Source: Bradyrhizobium sp. NAS96.2
Lineage (GTDB): Bacteria > Pseudomonadota > Alphaproteobacteria > Rhizobiales > Xanthobacteraceae
NCBI RefSeq assembly: GCF_001908235.1
Contig: NZ_LGHK01000047.1
Coordinates: 1-64,000, forward strand
DNA length: 64,000 nucleotides
Direction of reading: 5' to 3'
Shown here: positions 39,023 through 47,050 of the stretch, piece after piece
How the letters are laid out: every line of letters begins with the position of its first letter
How positions within the stretch are numbered: the stretch's first letter is position 1
Notes under the pieces: generated by a model
Told to the model about the DNA's origin: nothing
The model's input: only the letters and a program-made list of their open reading frames with translations
The model's database searches: none
Program-made: the position numbers and the translations under genes

Positions 39023-39397
39023 TGGTGTTGCTCCCTCGAGAGGCTTGTTGTTGTTCTGAGATGCCATCCTATACGGACCTGATGCCGCGGGGTCACCAGC
39101 GATCTCTGCACAGCTGGGGCTTATTGCAGCGTCCGTACGCCGCGGCAATATCGGCTTTCTAACGAGACGCGTGCGCGTCGATCGCGGTGCGATCCAGATG
39201 GGCTGGACCGACGGTCGGGATCGGTCAGGACAGACGCCTGGCTGCGGTCCGGTGCGAAGATTTCCAACTAAATATCTGATCTAATTGTAGATATAAATAT
39301 TCCATAATATACCTTATGCGAATTACAGATATGGGCCGGTGGTGCCTGGGGTGATGCAACGCGGGACGCCCTCCGCGACCCGACGGCCGCATGCCGC
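39023..39397. other. AT-rich intergenic region at the NRPS operon boundary
   Basis: These 375 bases lie between the ACAD gene (end of the NRPS operon) and dctP. About 39265-39330 is strikingly AT-rich for this genome. It must hold the dctP promoter and may mark an insertion boundary of the NRPS genes. No gene is supported. Confidence 0.5.
39272..39294. promoter_or_regulatory. Palindrome ATATCT-N11-AGATAT
   Basis: 6-bp arms separated by 11 bases give a T-N11-A core, the form of a LysR-type regulator box. A nested dyad ATCTA-N4-TAGAT (39279-39292) lies inside. It sits about 250 bp upstream of dctP. No LysR gene is in the window, so the binding protein is unknown. Confidence 0.3.
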
Positions 39398-40588
39398 TCA
39401 CGACATCGAGGCGACCACCTCCAGCATCACCTCCGTTGCGCCGCCGGCAATGGGAAGGACGCGCGCGTCACGCGCGATGCGCTCGATCGGGCTCTCACGC
39501 ATGACGCCCATGGCGCCGTGGAACTGGACGCAGGCATACGCGACCTCGTTGACGAGTTCGGCGCAGATGGCTTTCAACATCGAGATCTCGCGGATGCAAT
39601 CGTCGTCCGCCGCCATGCGCCACGCGGTGGCATAGAGAAACTCGCGGTTTGCCTCGACCTTCGCGGCGAGCATCGCGAGGCGTTGACGGATCGCCTGCAA
39701 GTCCCACAGGACGCCCCCGAATGCGCGGCGAGCTTTCACGTGGGCAAGGGTCATATCGATCGCCGCTTGGGCCATCCCGATCGCCATGGCGGCGAGGACG
39801 AGGCGCTCGTTCTGGAAGTTGCGCATGATTGAGTAGAAGCCCTGCCCCTCGGCGCCCAGCACGTTTTCGGCGGGGACCCGGCAACCGTCGAAGACGAGTT
39901 CCGCGGTGTCGGAGGAGCGCCAGCCCTGCTTGTCCAGTACGCGACCGACGCTGAAGCCCGGCGTGCCTTTCTCGACGAGGAACATCGTGATCCCGTTGCT
40001 TCCTGCCGAGGGATTGGTCTTGGCTGCGACGCAGTAGAGATCCGCGTGGACGCCGTTCGTGATGTAGAGCTTGGTGCCGTCGAGGATGTAGGAGTCGCCC
40101 TCCCGGAGCGCGCGCGTGCGGATGGCCTTCACGTCCGAGCCGGCGTCCGGTTCCGTGATGGCAACCGCGGTGATCACCTCGCCGCGGATGATGCCCGGCA
40201 TCCAGCGGGCCCGCTGGGCTCTGGTCCCGTCATGAAAGACATACACGGACGCCATCTCGGCCTGGACCAGCATCGCATCGGCGACTCCGCCATAGGTCGA
40301 GCGCCCAAGCTCCTCGGCGAAAACTGTCGACGCGACCGCGTCCATCTCGGCGCCGCCATACCCGCCCGGGTAACGGATACCGAAGAAACCGAGCTCGCCC
40401 ATGCGGCGCAGGACCGGACGGGGAATGAACCCCTGCTCTTCCCAGCCATCCGCGCAGGGCTTGATCTCCTCCTCGACGAACCGGCGGACCTGATCCCGCA
40501 GCAGCTCATACTCCGCCGCCGTCCAGGGCAACCCCGGTCCTCGCGCCGGTCCCAAAGCTTTGTCCATCATGTTCGTGCGCTCTGCCAT
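39398..40588 (-). CDS. Acyl-CoA-dehydrogenase-family flavoprotein of the NRPS operon
   Basis: A 396-residue FAD enzyme. Family motifs are AVAITEPDAGSDVKAIRT, QGWRSSDTAELVFDGCRVP and CVQFHGAMGVMRESPIERIA. The MCAD-type catalytic Glu (YEGT) is replaced (PIAGGAT), while Glu261 in FQNERLVLAA matches the isovaleryl-CoA dehydrogenase position, which is also used by aminoacyl-carrier-protein dehydrogenases such as prolyl-PCP oxidases. Located 47 nt after the NRPS gene, it probably oxidises the PCP-bound aminoacyl group. An ordinary acyl-CoA substrate remains possible. Start MAERTNMMDK at 40588. Confidence 0.85.
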   Translation of the reverse strand: MAERTNMMDKALGPARGPGLPWTAAEYELLRDQVRRFVEEEIKPCADGWEEQGFIPRPVLRRMGELGFFGIRYPGGYGGAEMDAVASTVFAEELGRSTYGGVADAMLVQAEMASVYVFHDGTRAQRARWMPGIIRGEVITAVAITEPDAGSDVKAIRTRALREGDSYILDGTKLYITNGVHADLYCVAAKTNPSAGSNGITMFLVEKGTPGFSVGRVLDKQGWRSSDTAELVFDGCRVPAENVLGAEGQGFYSIMRNFQNERLVLAAMAIGMAQAAIDMTLAHVKARRAFGGVLWDLQAIRQRLAMLAAKVEANREFLYATAWRMAADDDCIREISMLKAICAELVNEVAYACVQFHGAMGVMRESPIERIARDARVLPIAGGATEVMLEVVASMS

Positions 40589-40635
40589 CAGTCCAACGCA
40601 AATGTTTCCGTCCGGATCGGGAGCGTTCCGCCACG

Positions 40636-42603
40636 CTACAGTTCGATTTCCTCTCTCGGTCCCTCCGATGCGGAAGCGGCTTCGGAATGGGCCACCCAGC
40701 GCATCCCGTCGATCACTTCCGCCAGTTCGGACAGTGTCGGGCGCTCGAACAGGTTGCGAATCTGCACGTCGACGCCGAAGACCTTTCGCATCCGCGCGAC
40801 CGCCCGCACCACCAGCAGCGACTCGCCGCCCAGCTCGAAGAAGTTGTCGCGACGGCCGATCGACTTGACCTTCAGCAGATCGCACCACAACGCCGCCAGC
40901 GTCTTTTCGGTCTCCGTCGCGGGAGCGGTGAATTCCTGCGCTGACCGGATGTTTTCCGCCGTCGGCTCGGGCAGCGAGGTGCGGTCGACCTTGCCGTTGG
41001 AGGTGAGCGGCATCCGCTCAAGGCGAACATAGTGCGTCGGAATCATCGACTCCAACAGCTCTTCGGCCAGGTGGGCGCGCAGGTCCGCCACGGTCAGAGC
41101 GTCTGGCGAGACGTAGTAGGCCGCAAGTCGAGCCATGCCGCCTCCGGCCGCGGACGGTTCGATGACGACGACCGCACATTCCTGCACCTGCGGGTGCTTG
41201 AGAAGCCGCGCTTCGATCTCGCCGAGCTCGACACGCGCACCACCGACCTTCACCTGATGATCTGCACGGCCGAGAAATTCCAGGCGTCCTTCCGGACTCC
41301 AGCGGGCAAGATCGCCCGTCTTGTATAGCCGCAGCTTCGTGAACCCGTCTCGGGGATCGATCGCCGTGCGGAAACGGTCGTCGGTCAGGTCAGGCCGATT
41401 GAAATAGCCCCTCGCGAGGCCGTCGCCGGCAATGAACATCTCACCGATGATGCCGGGACCGGTCGGCTGATATGCTTCGCTGAGGACGTAGATTCCGGCA
41501 TTGGCGGCCGGAACGCCGATCGGGACCGAGCCCGCTTGATCCCGGTCGATGTCGAAACGGTGAATCATGCAGCCTACCGTGGCTTCGGTTGGTCCGTATT
41601 CGTTGTAGATCTCGACCGGATGCGGGATGGCTTTCGTGATGTCGCGGGCCAGCTCGGTCTTGAAGTCCTCACCGCCCACGATGAATTTCCGCAGGCGTGT
41701 GGTTTCAAGATTGCGGTCGCGAATCATCGCCAGATGCGCCGGCGTCAGCTTCATGATGTCGACGGCATTGTCGTCGATGACCTTGAGCACGACCATACTC
41801 TGCACGCCGGGATCACCGAGATAGACCACGATGCGGCCGCCGGTGATGAGGGGCGTAAAGAGCGTCGTGACGGTCAGGTCGAAAGCGAGAGAGGAGAACA
41901 GAGGCCAGGCCAGACGTTCGCCGGAACTGTAGACCTGGGCGGCCCACCAGATGTAATTCACCAGGCTCCGGTGCGCGATCTCGACGCCCTTGGGTGTGCC
42001 GGTCGAGCCGGAGGTGAAGATGATATAGGCGGTGCCGTCCGGCGTGGCAGCGGACGGCCGGGCAGAGTCGGGTTGACGCGCAATCGAAGCGAAATCGGCG
42101 TCGAGCACGACAATCTCGGCAAGATCGGGGGAAATGGCGGCTTCCAGGCGCGCCTGCGTGATCGCGACTGGCGACCGCCCGTCGGTTCCGTCGGAAATAT
42201 CCGTCAGGATCGTTGCGATGCGCCCCTTCGGCGTTGCCGCGTCCACCGGCACATAGGCTGCGCCGGATTTCAGGACACCCAGGATCGCGACGACGACCTC
42301 AATGGAGTGCTCCATGAACACGACGGCAATCCGACCCGGCCCCACGCCGATCGCGCTCAAATGCGCGGCCATCTGATTGGAGCGTCCGTCGAGCTGCCGG
42401 TACGTCAGCATGACATCGCCGAAGCGGATCGCTTCAGCGTCCGGGCTACGCGTCACCCGGTCACGAAACAGATCGATGATCGTCCGGTCCGACGGGTAGC
42501 TCGCCGCCGTGGCGTTGTACGCGACAACCAGCGTTTGATGATCGGCACTGTTCAGAAGGGGAAGCGCTACGCCCTCCTCCACAATGGGCAGGACTTCATT
42601 CAT
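40636..42603 (-). CDS. Single-module NRPS: adenylation-PCP, predicted asparagine-activating
   Basis: A 655-residue protein without a condensation domain. The adenylation domain (about 40-545) has IIFTSGSTGTPKGVE at 194-208, YGPTEA near 337, KTGDLARW and catalytic Lys538 in NGKVD. The carrier domain (about 565-640) has LGGESLL with phosphopantetheine Ser595. The ten specificity residues read D242 L243 T246 K285 I308 G310 E335 V343 G344 K538 (DLTKIGEVGK), one change from the published Asn code DLTKLGEVGK. The C-terminus ends in acidic EEIEL, like docking tails. ATG 42603 has GGAG 8 nt upstream. Encoded with a thioesterase, PPTase and dehydrogenase. Confidence 0.9.
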   Translation of the reverse strand: MNEVLPIVEEGVALPLLNSADHQTLVVAYNATAASYPSDRTIIDLFRDRVTRSPDAEAIRFGDVMLTYRQLDGRSNQMAAHLSAIGVGPGRIAVVFMEHSIEVVVAILGVLKSGAAYVPVDAATPKGRIATILTDISDGTDGRSPVAITQARLEAAISPDLAEIVVLDADFASIARQPDSARPSAATPDGTAYIIFTSGSTGTPKGVEIAHRSLVNYIWWAAQVYSSGERLAWPLFSSLAFDLTVTTLFTPLITGGRIVVYLGDPGVQSMVVLKVIDDNAVDIMKLTPAHLAMIRDRNLETTRLRKFIVGGEDFKTELARDITKAIPHPVEIYNEYGPTEATVGCMIHRFDIDRDQAGSVPIGVPAANAGIYVLSEAYQPTGPGIIGEMFIAGDGLARGYFNRPDLTDDRFRTAIDPRDGFTKLRLYKTGDLARWSPEGRLEFLGRADHQVKVGGARVELGEIEARLLKHPQVQECAVVVIEPSAAGGGMARLAAYYVSPDALTVADLRAHLAEELLESMIPTHYVRLERMPLTSNGKVDRTSLPEPTAENIRSAQEFTAPATETEKTLAALWCDLLKVKSIGRRDNFFELGGESLLVVRAVARMRKVFGVDVQIRNLFERPTLSELAEVIDGMRWVAHSEAASASEGPREEIEL

Positions 42604-42655
42604 GAACCACGCTCCATCAAGCAATCAATAATCAAATCGCGTCAGTGAAATTGCG

Positions 42656-43654
42656 TCAGTCGCTCGGCTCCTGGATTGCCTGGCGATAAAGCGCTGCGAT
42701 CGCGGACACGTCAGGTTCTTCCAGCATGGAGTCCGCGTGACAGCCCTCGGGCCCGAAAAAAAATTCGGCATGAGGCGCCGCACGAAGCCATCTGCGCGGC
42801 CCCGCACCCGATCGCAGCCAGGCCTTGTTCGGAAGGAATATGCATACCCGCCCCGAATACGGAGCGGGAACGTATTGCCGAAAGGCGGTGATCGCCGTGG
42901 ATTTGAGCCGGGCTCTGCTTGCCAGCACCAGGTCCGTCGCGATCGGCTCCTTGCCCTTCCGAACGAAGGTCACGAGACCGCGGAGACGACTGCTGAAATA
43001 TTGCAGACGAGCGCCGAACGTCGGCCGCTTCGCCATTTCGCGCTGAATTGCTTCGCGTCTGCTCCTGGCGGTGAAATAAAGCAGACGCGGTAGTTCCTGA
43101 TGGGTGGTCGGGTGAAGAGGGCCAAAGAGCGCGATGCATGGCACCTCCGCTCCGCGGCGTCCCAGGATTTTCGCGAGTTCGAAAGCAGTTGGAGCGCCGG
43201 AGCAATATCCGGCGATGATGTACGGACCCTTGGGCTGATACTCGACGATCTGGCGGGCGAAATACTCGGCGATATCTTCGACGCGGTCCATCGGCTCGCT
43301 CTGCCCATCGTAGCCGGTCGGTTGCAGTGCGTAGAATGGCTGATCGCCGCCTAGATGCTTCGACAGGTCCGAGAATGTGAACGGCGCCCCGACATGCCCG
43401 GGGACGGCGTAAATCGGCGTACGTGTTCCGCCAGACTGCAGGGGAATGATTGCAGGCTGTCGCGTGGCCGCCGTGGCCATATTCAGAAACGCGATGATCT
43501 CGCTTTTCCGGTCCTGCAACTGGTCGCGAAGCTCTGATGTGAGTGCGCCAGCCGGCGCGTTGCACCGCAGCCGGTCGCCCTCCACCCAGAGCCTGATGTC
43601 CCTGACCGCGAGGGCTGCGAGGAGCTCGGAAAACTGTATCAACTGCGCTGACAT
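42656..43654 (-). CDS. Docking domain-thioesterase protein with Cys nucleophile
   Basis: A 332-residue protein. Residues about 8-57 (LLAALAVRDIRLWVEGDRLR, then SELRDQLQDRKSEIIAFL) look like a TubC-type N-terminal docking domain. A type I-like thioesterase follows (about 65-330). The nucleophile elbow is AGYCSGAPTAFELA, with Cys151 in place of Ser. The catalytic Asp expected after the next strand is Gly (IALFGPLHP). His306 in GCHADSMLEEPDV is retained. It is transcribed before the NRPS and probably releases or rearranges its PCP-bound product. Cys-type TEs are known in beta-lactone (obafluorin) and monobactam (sulfazecin) assembly; a similar outcome here is only a suggestion. Confidence 0.85.
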   Translation of the reverse strand: MSAQLIQFSELLAALAVRDIRLWVEGDRLRCNAPAGALTSELRDQLQDRKSEIIAFLNMATAATRQPAIIPLQSGGTRTPIYAVPGHVGAPFTFSDLSKHLGGDQPFYALQPTGYDGQSEPMDRVEDIAEYFARQIVEYQPKGPYIIAGYCSGAPTAFELAKILGRRGAEVPCIALFGPLHPTTHQELPRLLYFTARSRREAIQREMAKRPTFGARLQYFSSRLRGLVTFVRKGKEPIATDLVLASRARLKSTAITAFRQYVPAPYSGRVCIFLPNKAWLRSGAGPRRWLRAAPHAEFFFGPEGCHADSMLEEPDVSAIAALYRQAIQEPSD

Positions 43655-43756
43655 GGGGCTAGCCCGTGCTCTCGTCTGCGACCGCCATGTGCGGGAGCGA
43701 AGTGCGGCGCGAATGAGCCCCCGTGCAGTCTAATGGACTTCGATGAGCCTGCTCGT

Positions 43757-44551
43757 TCAATGCGTAGTGACATCGCGCGAATGCCCGTTCGGGATGACCA
43801 CCACGCTCCCGATATACCCACTTCGAGGTATGAACCTTCGGACGACCCAATCCCTTTCATTCCAGGACAATGACTGTCCCAAGCCGCACCCCAAGGCCTT
43901 GGAGATAGCTTCCAACTGCGTCCAGCGCCGGAAGAAGCCTTCCAGGCGGTCTTCCGCGTCAAGGGCGGCGTAGGATCCGCCCTCGGAGGCGGAAAAGCAG
44001 AGCGCTGCAATTTCGTCCGCTTCGGGCACAGGGAGGACCGCCTCGATGTCCACGCCGACCTCTTGCCGCGTCGAGAGGGCGACGACCGCCACGTCGCCGG
44101 ATCGGGAGAAGCTGAAGCGCAGATCGCGCGCGGGCATGCGGTGCGACAAATAGGGTTTGCCAAGCGGTCCGTATTCCAGTTCGACGTCGGACGGCGAAAT
44201 TCCCAGTTTGGAAGCGAGAACCCGGCGCAACTGGCCGCGTCCAACAACAAAGCGGCGGCGGTCCCGCTCCAGCCTCACCCGCTCGGCGCGCCGGCGTTCC
44301 TCTTCGTTCAGGCCGACATCCATGACGCCAATGATGTCCGGTTCCGCATCGAGCGAGAATGCCAGGACCTCTAAGCCGTCATTCTCGAGAACTGGCACGA
44401 TCCTCCCGGATCTCAGCTCGACGGTTTCATCGAAGGAGCTCAGACTGCGCGACGCTGTTCCTCGGCCCGCACCCAATGCGCCGTCGCGATCGTCTCTGCC
44501 CGCGACGGAAGCTTGGCAAAAATCGGGCTCGGGGCGGCAGTCAGACGTCAT
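43757..44551 (-). CDS. Sfp-type 4'-phosphopantetheinyl transferase
   Basis: A 264-residue PPTase that would prime the carrier domain of the NRPS downstream. The markers are ELEYGPLGKPYL, LRFSFSRSGDVAVVALS, the Mg-binding VGVDIEAV and FFRRWTQLEAISKALGCGL, in which the usual Lys before the Glu is Leu. The N-terminal 45 residues are atypical and may indicate a later start. It is the first gene of the operon and is 102 nt from the thioesterase gene. It is probably cluster-dedicated rather than the fatty-acid AcpS. Confidence 0.88.
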   Translation of the reverse strand: MTSDCRPEPDFCQASVAGRDDRDGALGAGRGTASRSLSSFDETVELRSGRIVPVLENDGLEVLAFSLDAEPDIIGVMDVGLNEEERRRAERVRLERDRRRFVVGRGQLRRVLASKLGISPSDVELEYGPLGKPYLSHRMPARDLRFSFSRSGDVAVVALSTRQEVGVDIEAVLPVPEADEIAALCFSASEGGSYAALDAEDRLEGFFRRWTQLEAISKALGCGLGQSLSWNERDWVVRRFIPRSGYIGSVVVIPNGHSRDVTTH

Positions 44552-44883
44552 ACGTGCATTCCGATCGCGAGAGCGCGCTCACGCGCAAGCCAATGGCTTC
44601 CGACGAACAGCCGCGCCGTTCGTGCAGATTTCGTCGATTAAGCGATCGGGGAGACACGAAAGCAAGGAGCGGCGGGTGGCTATTTGGATGTATGGATGGG
44701 CTACCCCTCACGGCCATATGGCATTCGGCAACTCGGCCAATCTCGCTCCGCCCTTGGCATGTTGCCGGCGCTTGATCGCGTCGGCCGCTCGCAAATAGTC
44801 CATGTGGCGGTCGAACGTGACCATCCTTTTGGACGGCACCGGCGGCGATGTCGGACTGGCGCAACAATCGTACGACAGTGCCG
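44552..44883. other. Intergenic region upstream of the NRPS operon
   Basis: These 332 bases separate the enoyl-CoA hydratase stop from the PPTase start, both on the minus strand. The NRPS-operon promoter must be here. No gene, clear terminator or operator dyad could be supported. Confidence 0.4.
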
Positions 44884-45764: not shown

Positions 45765-46394
45765 ATGAGCGAACATGATCACCACCACCACGATCACGAC
45801 CATTCCGAATTGTCGGAGACCGAACTGCGCGTCCGCGCGCTGGAATCGATCCTGACCGAGAAGGGCTATGTCGAGGCTGCCGCGCTCGACGCCATCGTGC
45901 AGGCCTATGAGACCAAGATCGGCCCGCATAACGGCGCCAAGGTCGTCGCCAAGGCCTGGAGCGATCCCGCGTTCAAGCAGGCGCTACTCGAGGACGCCTC
46001 CAAGGCAGTCGGCACCCTCGGCCATGTCAGCCGGGTCGGCGACCATCTGGTCGCGATCGAGAACACGCCTGGCCGTCACAACATGGTCGTCTGCACGCTT
46101 TGCTCCTGTTACCCCTGGGAAATGCTCGGGCTGCCGCCGGTCTGGTACAAGGCCTCGCCGTACCGCTCGCGCGCGGTCAAGGATCCGCGCGGCGTGCTCG
46201 CCGATTTCGGCATCAGCCTGCCGAAGGAGACGGAAATCCGGGTCTGGGACTCCACGGCTGAGACGCGCTTCCTGGTGCTGCCGATGCGGCCCGCGGGTAC
46301 CGAGGGCTGGAGCGAGGAGCAACTCGCCGAGCTCGTGACGCGCGATTCCATGATCGGCACCGGATTTCCGAAGACGCCGGGAGCGCCGTCGTGA
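45765..46394 (+). CDS. nthA: Nitrile hydratase subunit alpha (cobalt type)
   Basis: A 209-residue metal-bearing subunit that hydrates nitriles to amides. The metal claw [10 protein letters not shown] has Cys110, Cys113 and Cys115; Thr in CTLCSC marks the cobalt type (iron enzymes have Ser there). [19 protein letters not shown] and [16 protein letters not shown] are family-typical. The N-terminus is unusually His-rich ([14 protein letters not shown]), possibly a cobalt-binding handle. The stop overlaps the beta start (GTGA). No amidase gene follows. Confidence 0.95.
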
Positions 46395-47050
46395 ACGGCG
46401 TCCACGACATGGGCGGCATGGACGGCTTCGGCAAGGTCGAGCCCGAGCCGAACGAGCCGATGTTCCATACGGAATGGGAGTCGCGGGTGCTCGCGATGGT
46501 CCGCGCGATGGGCGCGGCCGGCGCCTTCAACATCGACGCCTCGCGCTTCTATCGCGAGACCCTGCCCCCGCAGGTCTATCTGTCGAGCTCCTATTACAAA
46601 AAATGGTTCCTTGGGCTGGAAGCCCTGCTGCTCGACAAGGGCTATATCTCCAAGGACGACGTCGCCGCCGGACACGCCGTTGCGCCGGCGAAATCGCTCA
46701 AGCACGGCAAATTCTCGACCGCCGATATCGAGCGCATCATGGTGCGCGGCAAGTTCGGCCGCGCAGCGCCTGCGGCCGCGAAGTTCAAGGCCGGCGATCG
46801 GGTGCGGGCGAAGAACATTCACCCCGCCACGCACACCCGGCTGCCGCGTTACGTGCGTGGTCATGTCGGGGTGGTCGAGCGCGATCATGGCTGTCACGTT
46901 TTCCCCGATACCGCGGCGAACGACGCCGGCGAGCATCCGCAATGGCTGTACACCGTCGTGTTCGACGGACGCGAATTGTGGGGACCGGACTCCGATCCGA
47001 CCATCAAGGTTTCGATCGACGCGTTCGAGCCTTATCTGGAGGCCATCTGA
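46391..47050 (+). CDS. nthB: Nitrile hydratase subunit beta
   Basis: A 219-residue partner of the alpha subunit, forming the interface and substrate channel. The start [19 protein letters not shown] is highly characteristic. [20 protein letters not shown] and the SH3-like C-terminal barrel ([36 protein letters not shown]) follow. It uses GTG overlapping the alpha stop, and its own stop overlaps the activator start, indicating tight coupling of all three genes. Confidence 0.95.

What the first reader, a model, noticed from the sequence alone, without database searches (positions are those of the whole stretch)
39398..44551. Compact NRPS operon: PPTase, docking-thioesterase, A-PCP and dehydrogenase
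Four co-oriented genes contain every step for loading one amino acid on a carrier, oxidising it and releasing it, but no condensation domain. I know of no described rhizobial product from this exact set. It resembles the logic of aminoacyl-PCP dehydrogenation pathways (prolyl to pyrrolyl), with a different predicted amino acid. An AT-rich region borders it. The product could be a small dehydro- or cyclised amino-acid metabolite.
Basis: partly seen in the sequence, partly recalled or inferred. Interest (0 to 1): 0.85.

Follow-up and report, generated by a model that had tools for sequence, protein, structure and literature searches.

The report
Asparagine-loading mini-NRPS cassette in rhizobia
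A compact, relocating four-gene cassette in Bradyrhizobium and relatives appears to fasten one asparagine to a carrier protein, oxidise it there and hand it to a docked cysteine enzyme, a rearranged relative of the module that builds part of the antibiotics albicidin and cystobactamid, with no known product.

Summary
The four genes are real, at the stated coordinates: PPTase, TubC_N-thioesterase, A-PCP, acyl-CoA-dehydrogenase. They travel as a unit: 26 of 28 distinct close loci (six alphaproteobacterial genera) keep order and orientation; the other two are a contig end and a cis A-PCP-TE fusion. All four genes are under purifying selection. The A-domain code (DLTKIGEVGK; DLTKVGEVGK in a 40-43% identical second branch) is asparagine-like. 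Seven of 28 loci carry a ~330-residue PP-loop domain inside the A domain, fitting the published AMDH domain of CysH and AlbIV; linker scars suggest the others, the window included, lost it. The thioesterase nucleophile is cysteine in every copy, but its His/Asp partners are not conserved. A special asparagine synthase occurs in 19 of 223 Bradyrhizobium genomes, all carriers. Relatives often lie near surface-polysaccharide genes; the window copy does not. The cassette occupies a variable chromosomal site; the AT-rich border and the nitrile hydratase are host DNA. Best reading: Asn-S-PCP, desaturated on the carrier, passed to a docked Cys-TE; product unknown. A new variant of a known kind.

The parts
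43757..44551 (-). Sfp/HetI-type 4'-phosphopantetheinyl transferase, first gene; would arm the PCP
   Evidence: Pfam PF01648 9.3e-14, PF22624 3.1e-10; best NCBIfam model HetI 118.6 bits, below its cut-off of 370; dN/dS 0.22-0.35
42656..43654 (-). TubC_N docking domain (residues 10-57) plus thioesterase fold with Cys nucleophile (GYCSG)
   Evidence: Pfam; Cys in 26 of 26 distinct close and 5 of 5 distant copies and in the cis TE of L073; at the catalytic-His position the window has His, 20 of 26 close copies and 5 of 5 distant ones do not; position-I Asp in none of 31; AF2 pLDDT 78.8, best fold hits NRPS/PKS TEs
40636..42624 (-). A-PCP didomain, asparagine-like specificity code DLTKIGEVGK, C-terminal tail GPREEIEL (putative docking motif)
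   Evidence: Pfam; TIGR01733 409.9 bits vs cut-off 317.4; code; tail
39398..40588 (-). acyl-CoA-dehydrogenase-family flavoprotein, proposed Asn-S-PCP dehydrogenase
   Evidence: Pfam, NCBIfam, PDB relatives, the ERL Glu kept in 35 of 35 rows, dN/dS 0.02-0.21
39335..44880 (.). extent of the cassette: the stretch absent between the same host genes (enoyl-CoA hydratase and TRAP DctP) in five related genomes
   Evidence: blastn breakpoints of the window against five of eight fetched sites

Best explanation
The operon is a stand-alone asparagine-tailoring module. Inferred steps: (1) the PPTase arms the PCP; (2) the A domain adenylates L-asparagine and loads it on the PCP; (3) the ACAD desaturates the C-alpha/C-beta bond of carrier-bound Asn in trans, giving a dehydro-asparaginyl thioester; (4) the A-PCP C-terminal tail (REEIEL) docks the TubC_N domain of the Cys-thioesterase, which takes the aminoacyl group onto its cysteine and either closes the side-chain amide onto the thioester (an aminomaleimide/aminosuccinimide-type ring, the five-membered counterpart of the glutamine to indigoidine logic) or hands it to another acceptor, as CmaE/SyrC/CysB do. 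In relatives an AMDH-like domain in the A domain would also act on the Asn amide, and a dedicated asparagine synthase would supply Asn; the window genome shows neither. Shown from sequence: domain identities, gene order, code, Cys, tail, conservation, purifying selection, AsnB co-occurrence. Inferred: every chemical step, the docking and the product.
For: Domains. Code DLTKIGEVGK in 30 of 30 close rows (28 distinct) and DLTKVGEVGK in 6 of 6 distant rows; the Asn reference DLTKLGEVGK is recalled, and no held paper contains its first eight letters. Asparagine synthase directly downstream on the same strand in L045, L049 and L073; the L049 protein passes the AsnB equivalog cut-off, 860 vs 499 bits; this AsnB is in 19 of 223 Bradyrhizobium genomes, all 19 carriers, and in the carriers G108 and G122. 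[quoted passage not shown] Cys nucleophile in 26 of 26 close and 5 of 5 distant TEs and in the TE fused in cis to the A-PCP of L073. In L078 and L079 a TubC_N domain carries a methyltransferase. Docking by a short C-terminal strand with two salt bridges is described for related docking domains (PMC6195595 passages). Purifying selection.
Against: The ACAD matches no PCP-dehydrogenase model at cut-off, and its best model by score is acryloyl-CoA reductase, so a substrate other than Asn-S-PCP is not excluded. The TE's His is replaced in 20 of 26 close and 5 of 5 distant copies and position-I Asp in all 31, so catalysis is unproven; conversely the window copy has a His there, so hydrolysis is not excluded. 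The own genome gave no match to the AMDH-like domain and only partial 39% matches to the cluster-type AsnB. L078 has no TE recognised beyond TubC_N, L082 no ACAD in the stretch fetched. No product, no expression data. The code is read from hand-placed positions.
Confidence: 0.55

Rival explanations
1. Polysaccharide-decoration module: the (dehydro)asparaginyl group is not released but passed from the Cys-TE, perhaps with the linked FemAB/GNAT-like protein, onto exopolysaccharide or its precursor.
For: 17 of the 27 close loci other than the window hold at least one of an OPX-type export gene (5), the GNAT gene (7) or a GalE of at least 50% identity (10) in the stretch fetched (families); the distant-branch loci lie among genes that read by eye as surface-polysaccharide genes; in G099 the AsnB-GNAT pair lies beside regulators, GalE and an export-like gene 6.3 Mb from the operon.
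Against: No control was run for how often such genes lie near random loci; GalE and GNAT alone are weak markers; the window copy and its closest relatives lie among unrelated genes; no acceptor or sugar-linked step is shown.
Confidence: 0.2
2. Feeder module: the Cys-TE is an aminoacyltransferase of the CmaE/SyrC/CysB kind that shuttles modified Asn to the carrier of a separate assembly line.
For: Cys nucleophile with unconserved His/Asp; CysB does this for Asn from CysH, LgnA for Thr; the own genome has another A-PCP-condensation protein on contig C362.
Against: No second carrier among the ten window proteins scanned; nothing links C362 to this cassette.
Confidence: 0.15
3. The TE simply hydrolyses the oxidised product, and the cassette makes a free dehydro- or keto-asparagine derivative.
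For: Simplest use of the four domains; the window clade has a His near the canonical place (GCHADSML).
Against: That His is absent in 20 of 26 close and 5 of 5 distant copies and position-I Asp in all 31.
Confidence: 0.13

Closest known systems
CysH (cystobactamid) and AlbIV (albicidin) stand-alone Asn NRPS modules with an inserted AMDH domain (PMC7966384, passages)
   Same: Stand-alone A-T module; Asn code here, Asn loading there; SGGKD domain of similar size inserted in the A domain of 7 of 28 close loci; tailoring of Asn on the carrier in trans; an associated aminoacyl shuttle (CysB)
   Different: Window copy lacks AMDH; ACAD instead of an oxygenase (CysJ); no multi-module NRPS seen beside it; TubC_N-docked TE; own PPTase. 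Direct sequence comparison with CysH/AlbIV was not run
Prolyl-PCP dehydrogenase sets (RedW, PigA, 4irn prolyl-ACP dehydrogenase)
   Same: A + PCP + ACAD logic; Glu in the isovaleryl-CoA-dehydrogenase position (position recalled)
   Different: Asn not Pro code; model scores far under cut-off
CmaE / SyrC / CysB aminoacyltransferases and LgnA
   Same: Take an aminoacyl group from a stand-alone A-T module; Cys nucleophile for CmaE and SyrC is recalled
   Different: Here with a TubC_N domain; transfer not shown; LgnA keeps a Ser-Asp-His triad
Indigoidine synthetase (recalled: A-Ox-T-TE, glutamine)
   Same: Single amide amino acid loaded, desaturated, cyclised
   Different: Asn, ACAD in trans, docked Cys-TE; dimerisation unknown
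ObiF and SulM Cys-TE domains (PMC6668435, PMC11298585, passages)
   Same: GxCxG-type nucleophile; there linked to strained-ring release
   Different: They have full Cys-His-Asp triads; here His is kept in 6 of 26 close copies and position-I Asp in none

Membership tests
Stand-alone Asn NRPS module (CysH/AlbIV type) | A-T module not fused to a condensation domain | tested here: met
   Pfam: AMP-binding, AMP-binding_C, PP-binding only
Stand-alone Asn NRPS module (CysH/AlbIV type) | Asn-type specificity code | tested here: met
   30 of 30 close and 6 of 6 distant rows one residue from the recalled Asn code
Stand-alone Asn NRPS module (CysH/AlbIV type) | AMDH domain inserted in the A domain | tested here: not met
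   Absent in the window, no match in the own genome; an AMDH-like domain in 7 of 28 distinct close loci
Stand-alone Asn NRPS module (CysH/AlbIV type) | Sequence relationship of the relatives' insert to CysH/AlbIV AMDH | not tested
   Sequences not held; agreement only in place, size, SGGKD motif and Asn code
Prolyl/aminoacyl-PCP dehydrogenase (RedW/PigA) | Score above the curated equivalog cut-off | tested here: not met
   238.1 of 650 (RedW), 197.6 of 500 (PigA)
Prolyl/aminoacyl-PCP dehydrogenase (RedW/PigA) | Oxidation of a carrier-bound aminoacyl thioester | not testable with these tools
   needs enzymology
TubC_N docking system | TubC_N domain at the N-terminus of one partner | tested here: met
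   Pfam 4.8e-21
TubC_N docking system | Short C-terminal motif on the other partner that binds it | tested here: inconclusive
   Conserved tail in 35 of 35 free A-PCP C-termini (34 REExxx, L049 LEEIEL); binding itself not tested
Canonical NRPS thioesterase | Ser/Cys-His-Asp triad | tested here: not met
   Cys 31 of 31; His 6 of 26 close (window included) and 0 of 5 distant; position-I Asp 0 of 31; a possible Asp after the next strand only in 5 of 5 distant
CmaE/SyrC aminoacyltransferase | Transfer between carrier proteins | not testable with these tools
   no second carrier in the cassette

The most novel reading that the evidence does not exclude
Rhizobia use a relocating one-amino-acid NRPS cassette (A-PCP, ACAD, docked Cys-TE, in most carriers with a dedicated asparagine synthase and in many with a FemAB/GNAT-like partner) to make a dehydro-asparaginyl or aminomaleimide group that is attached to exopolysaccharide: carrier-protein chemistry serving surface-sugar decoration rather than peptide assembly.
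Probability: 0.17. Interest if true: 0.8.

Novelty: new variant of a known kind. Interest (0 to 1): 0.58.

Why it matters
[quoted passage not shown] Here the Asn module is reduced to a four-gene, self-contained cassette that can be expressed whole, and that exists with and without an AMDH-like domain in close relatives, a natural experiment on what the domain adds. A docked Cys-TE with an invariant Cys but a variable His is a testable odd enzyme, and the Asn-synthase and exopolysaccharide links suggest a possible surface or signalling role in plant-associated bacteria.

Tried and rejected
Nitrile hydratase as a partner (a nitrile from Asn would fit it): rejected, because it is near-universal in the genus (110 of 117 genomes) and flanks the cassette only in the window clade. 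AT-rich border as part of the cassette: rejected. Plasmid relatives: 65 records match, only two cover at least 80% of the A-AMDH-PCP query; there the AMDH-like domain (53-55% identity) is inside a larger NRPS beside a separate A/methyltransferase/ACAD/PCP set (domains of the Roseovarius one), a different architecture. The AF2 model of the insert failed (pLDDT 43.7) and was not used. Sampling for the insert gave 3 of 385 genomes in the class and 0 of 398 in the phylum at E 1e-40, a sparse sample. Loci L057-L064 (39% or less to the A-PCP) showed none of the window's other three cassette genes except a 38% PPTase in L064; L065 (24%) was looked at only; all were dropped. Rows left out of the tree: L052 and L048 (partial or frameshifted), L060 and L077 (duplicates of L076 and L043).

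Literature searches. For PMC7966384 I saw outline, abstract and found passages; for PMC8748450, PMC11298585, PMC6668435 and PMC6195595, found passages; for all others, search listings only. Recalled, from no call: the GrsA position numbering and Asn reference code, the A8 label, the IVD Glu position, indigoidine chemistry, the Cys of CmaE and SyrC, the usual place of a TE's His.

Full report
Observation. Pfam supports each. None of the four has a condensation domain.

Distribution. In the genus search the A-PCP has 19 close hits (82% identity or more, some of them partial) among 265 genomes, and named relatives lie in Bradyrhizobium, Mesorhizobium, Nitrobacter, Tardiphaga, Rhodopseudomonas and Microvirga. 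After removing two duplicates (identical proteins) I hold 28 distinct close loci, the window included. In 26 of 28 the four genes keep order and orientation. L052 starts at a contig edge and shows only A-PCP and ACAD; L073 has a different TE fused to the A-PCP. In L048 the A-PCP is frameshifted. Sampling of the family and the order with the TE gave 3 of 198 and 2 of 397 genomes, both counts including the window's own genome and a 31% match inside a 2190-residue frame in G252: patchy. dN/dS against 12 orthologs is 0.22-0.35 (PPTase), 0.16-0.28 (TE), 0.10-0.22 (A-PCP) and 0.02-0.21 (ACAD).

A second branch. Six further Bradyrhizobium genomes (G136, G075, G103, G122, G108, G017) have a 40-43% identical stand-alone A-PCP. 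In the stretches fetched, five of six hold an ACAD, five of six a TubC-TE and four of six the AsnB, in other gene orders; genome-wide all six have that AsnB. L082 showed no ACAD, and L078 a TubC_N-methyltransferase but no TE. I looked only at these six stand-alone hits.

Substrate. The ten code positions read DLTKIGEVGK in 30 of 30 close rows (28 distinct) and DLTKVGEVGK in 6 of 6 distant rows (positions placed by motif, numbering recalled). The recalled Asn code is DLTKLGEVGK. An asparagine synthase follows the ACAD on the same strand in L045, L049 and L073. Searching 223 Bradyrhizobium genomes for it at E 1e-150 or better gave 19, all 19 among the 25 carriers. Assuming all 25 carriers were in the sample, the hypergeometric value is 1e-22, an overstatement because genomes are related. 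With, 21 of 25 carriers have it; G000, G062, G074 and G215 do not, three of these four being the window genome and its nearest kin. Among the 15 genomes with AsnB and A-PCP on one contig the distance is 1.5-13.4 kb in 14 and 6.3 Mb in G099.

The lost domain. In 7 of 28 close loci (L050, L051, L053, L054, L056, L060, L074) about 330 residues are inserted in the A domain after its A8 region. NCBIfam calls the insert an N-acetyl-sugar-amidotransferase relative (142.7 bits, below the 203.2 cut-off); it has a Cys-rich start and SGGKDSS. PMC7966384 (passages) describes a 38 kDa SGGKD domain inserted in CysH, similar to one in AlbIV, that dehydrates carrier-bound Asn to beta-cyanoalanine or isomerises it, with homologs all inserted into Asn-specific A domains. 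I therefore call the insert AMDH-like; sequences of CysH/AlbIV were not held. Some non-inserted copies keep linker residues resembling both ends of the insert (clearest in L073 and L043, also L038 and L047). The tree needs three changes of state, with inserted Microvirga rows at the base of the close branch; several forks are open, so loss is favoured, not proven. The own genome gave 0 matches to the insert.

The thioesterase. Close rows have G[YF]CSG, distant rows GHCAG, the cis TE of L073 GKCNG. At the position where a TE has its catalytic His, 6 of 26 distinct close copies have His (the five of the window clade and L060); the other 20 have Asn, Asp, Tyr or Arg and the five distant ones Asn. 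Position-I Asp is Gly or Ala in all 31. The distant copies have an Asp after the next strand and a His a few residues before the loop, which could serve instead. The cis TE of L073 keeps VDPP and GEHSD. The best PDB profile alignments cover mainly the N-terminal half; the top one is AB3403, which also has Cys. The AF2 model is moderate (pLDDT 78.8, pTM 0.67), with NRPS and PKS TEs as nearest folds. Cys TEs are described as less common and tied to strained-ring release in ObiF and SulM.

Docking. Of 35 free A-PCP C-termini, 34 end in REE plus three residues (REE[IVL]E[LFI] close, REEFxL distant) and L049 in LEEIEL, like the five-residue C-terminal strand that binds such docking domains in PMC6195595 (passages). 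Binding itself is inferred.

The dehydrogenase. It is a general ACAD by score (best model AcrC, 307 of 640 bits; RedW 238 of 650); the best PDB chain is 2pg0 (272 bits), prolyl-ACP dehydrogenase 4irn lower (193 bits). The Glu of the ERL motif is kept in 35 of 35 rows; that this is the isovaleryl-CoA-dehydrogenase base position is recalled.

Site. Of eight fetched sites in relatives without the cassette there, five (G174, G238, G239, G087, G259) show homology to the window that breaks at about 39334 and 44880, with other genes between enoyl-CoA hydratase and DctP; in the other three (G036, G098, G071) only the enoyl-CoA-hydratase side was covered. Nitrile hydratase is in 110 of 117 genomes. In G099 a neighbourhood like that of other carriers (two LuxR-type regulators, GalE, GNAT, AsnB, an export-like gene) stands without the operon, 6.3 Mb away. 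So the unit is about 5.5 kb and seems to relocate.

Surface-polysaccharide link. 17 of the 27 close loci other than the window hold an OPX (5), GNAT (7) or GalE (10) relative in the stretch fetched; the distant loci lie among genes that read as polysaccharide genes (by eye). No background rate was measured.

Verdict. A conserved, selected, relocating asparagine-tailoring cassette. Asn loading is well supported by sequence; docking and oxidation of carrier-bound Asn are likely; product and acceptor are open.

Noticed in passing
L122 and L123 (Roseovarius and Pseudohalocynthiibacter plasmids): An NRPS with an AMDH-like domain next to a separate A/methyltransferase/ACAD/PCP set and a polysaccharide export gene; no product known to me.
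   Followed up: partly
L078:7608-8948 and L079:7455-8786: TubC_N docking domain fused to a HemK/PrmC-like methyltransferase, directly after the distant-branch A-PCP.
   Followed up: partly
L073:8079-11000 (G008): A-PCP fused in cis to a different Cys-thioesterase that keeps VDPP and GEHSD; no TubC_N.
   Followed up: partly
L005:1366-4686 (own genome, contig C362): Another A-PCP-condensation protein in the window's genome; possible but unlinked receiving line.
   Followed up: partly
L038:3558-6173; relatives in L051, L074, L075: An 870-900 residue acyl-AMP-ligase/PCP/thioesterase protein upstream of the GNAT gene in four loci; possible second carrier.
   Followed up: no
L140:8264-11439: GNAT and AsnB genes paired beside regulators and GalE in G099 where the operon itself is absent; the pair recurs in L141-L144.
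   Followed up: partly
L048:10001-11988: A-PCP of Bradyrhizobium tropiciagri is split by a frameshift around query residues 158-171; sequencing error or decay not decided.
   Followed up: no
window 45765-47050: Nitrile hydratase alpha and beta genes; alpha found in 110 of 117 genus genomes.
   Followed up: yes
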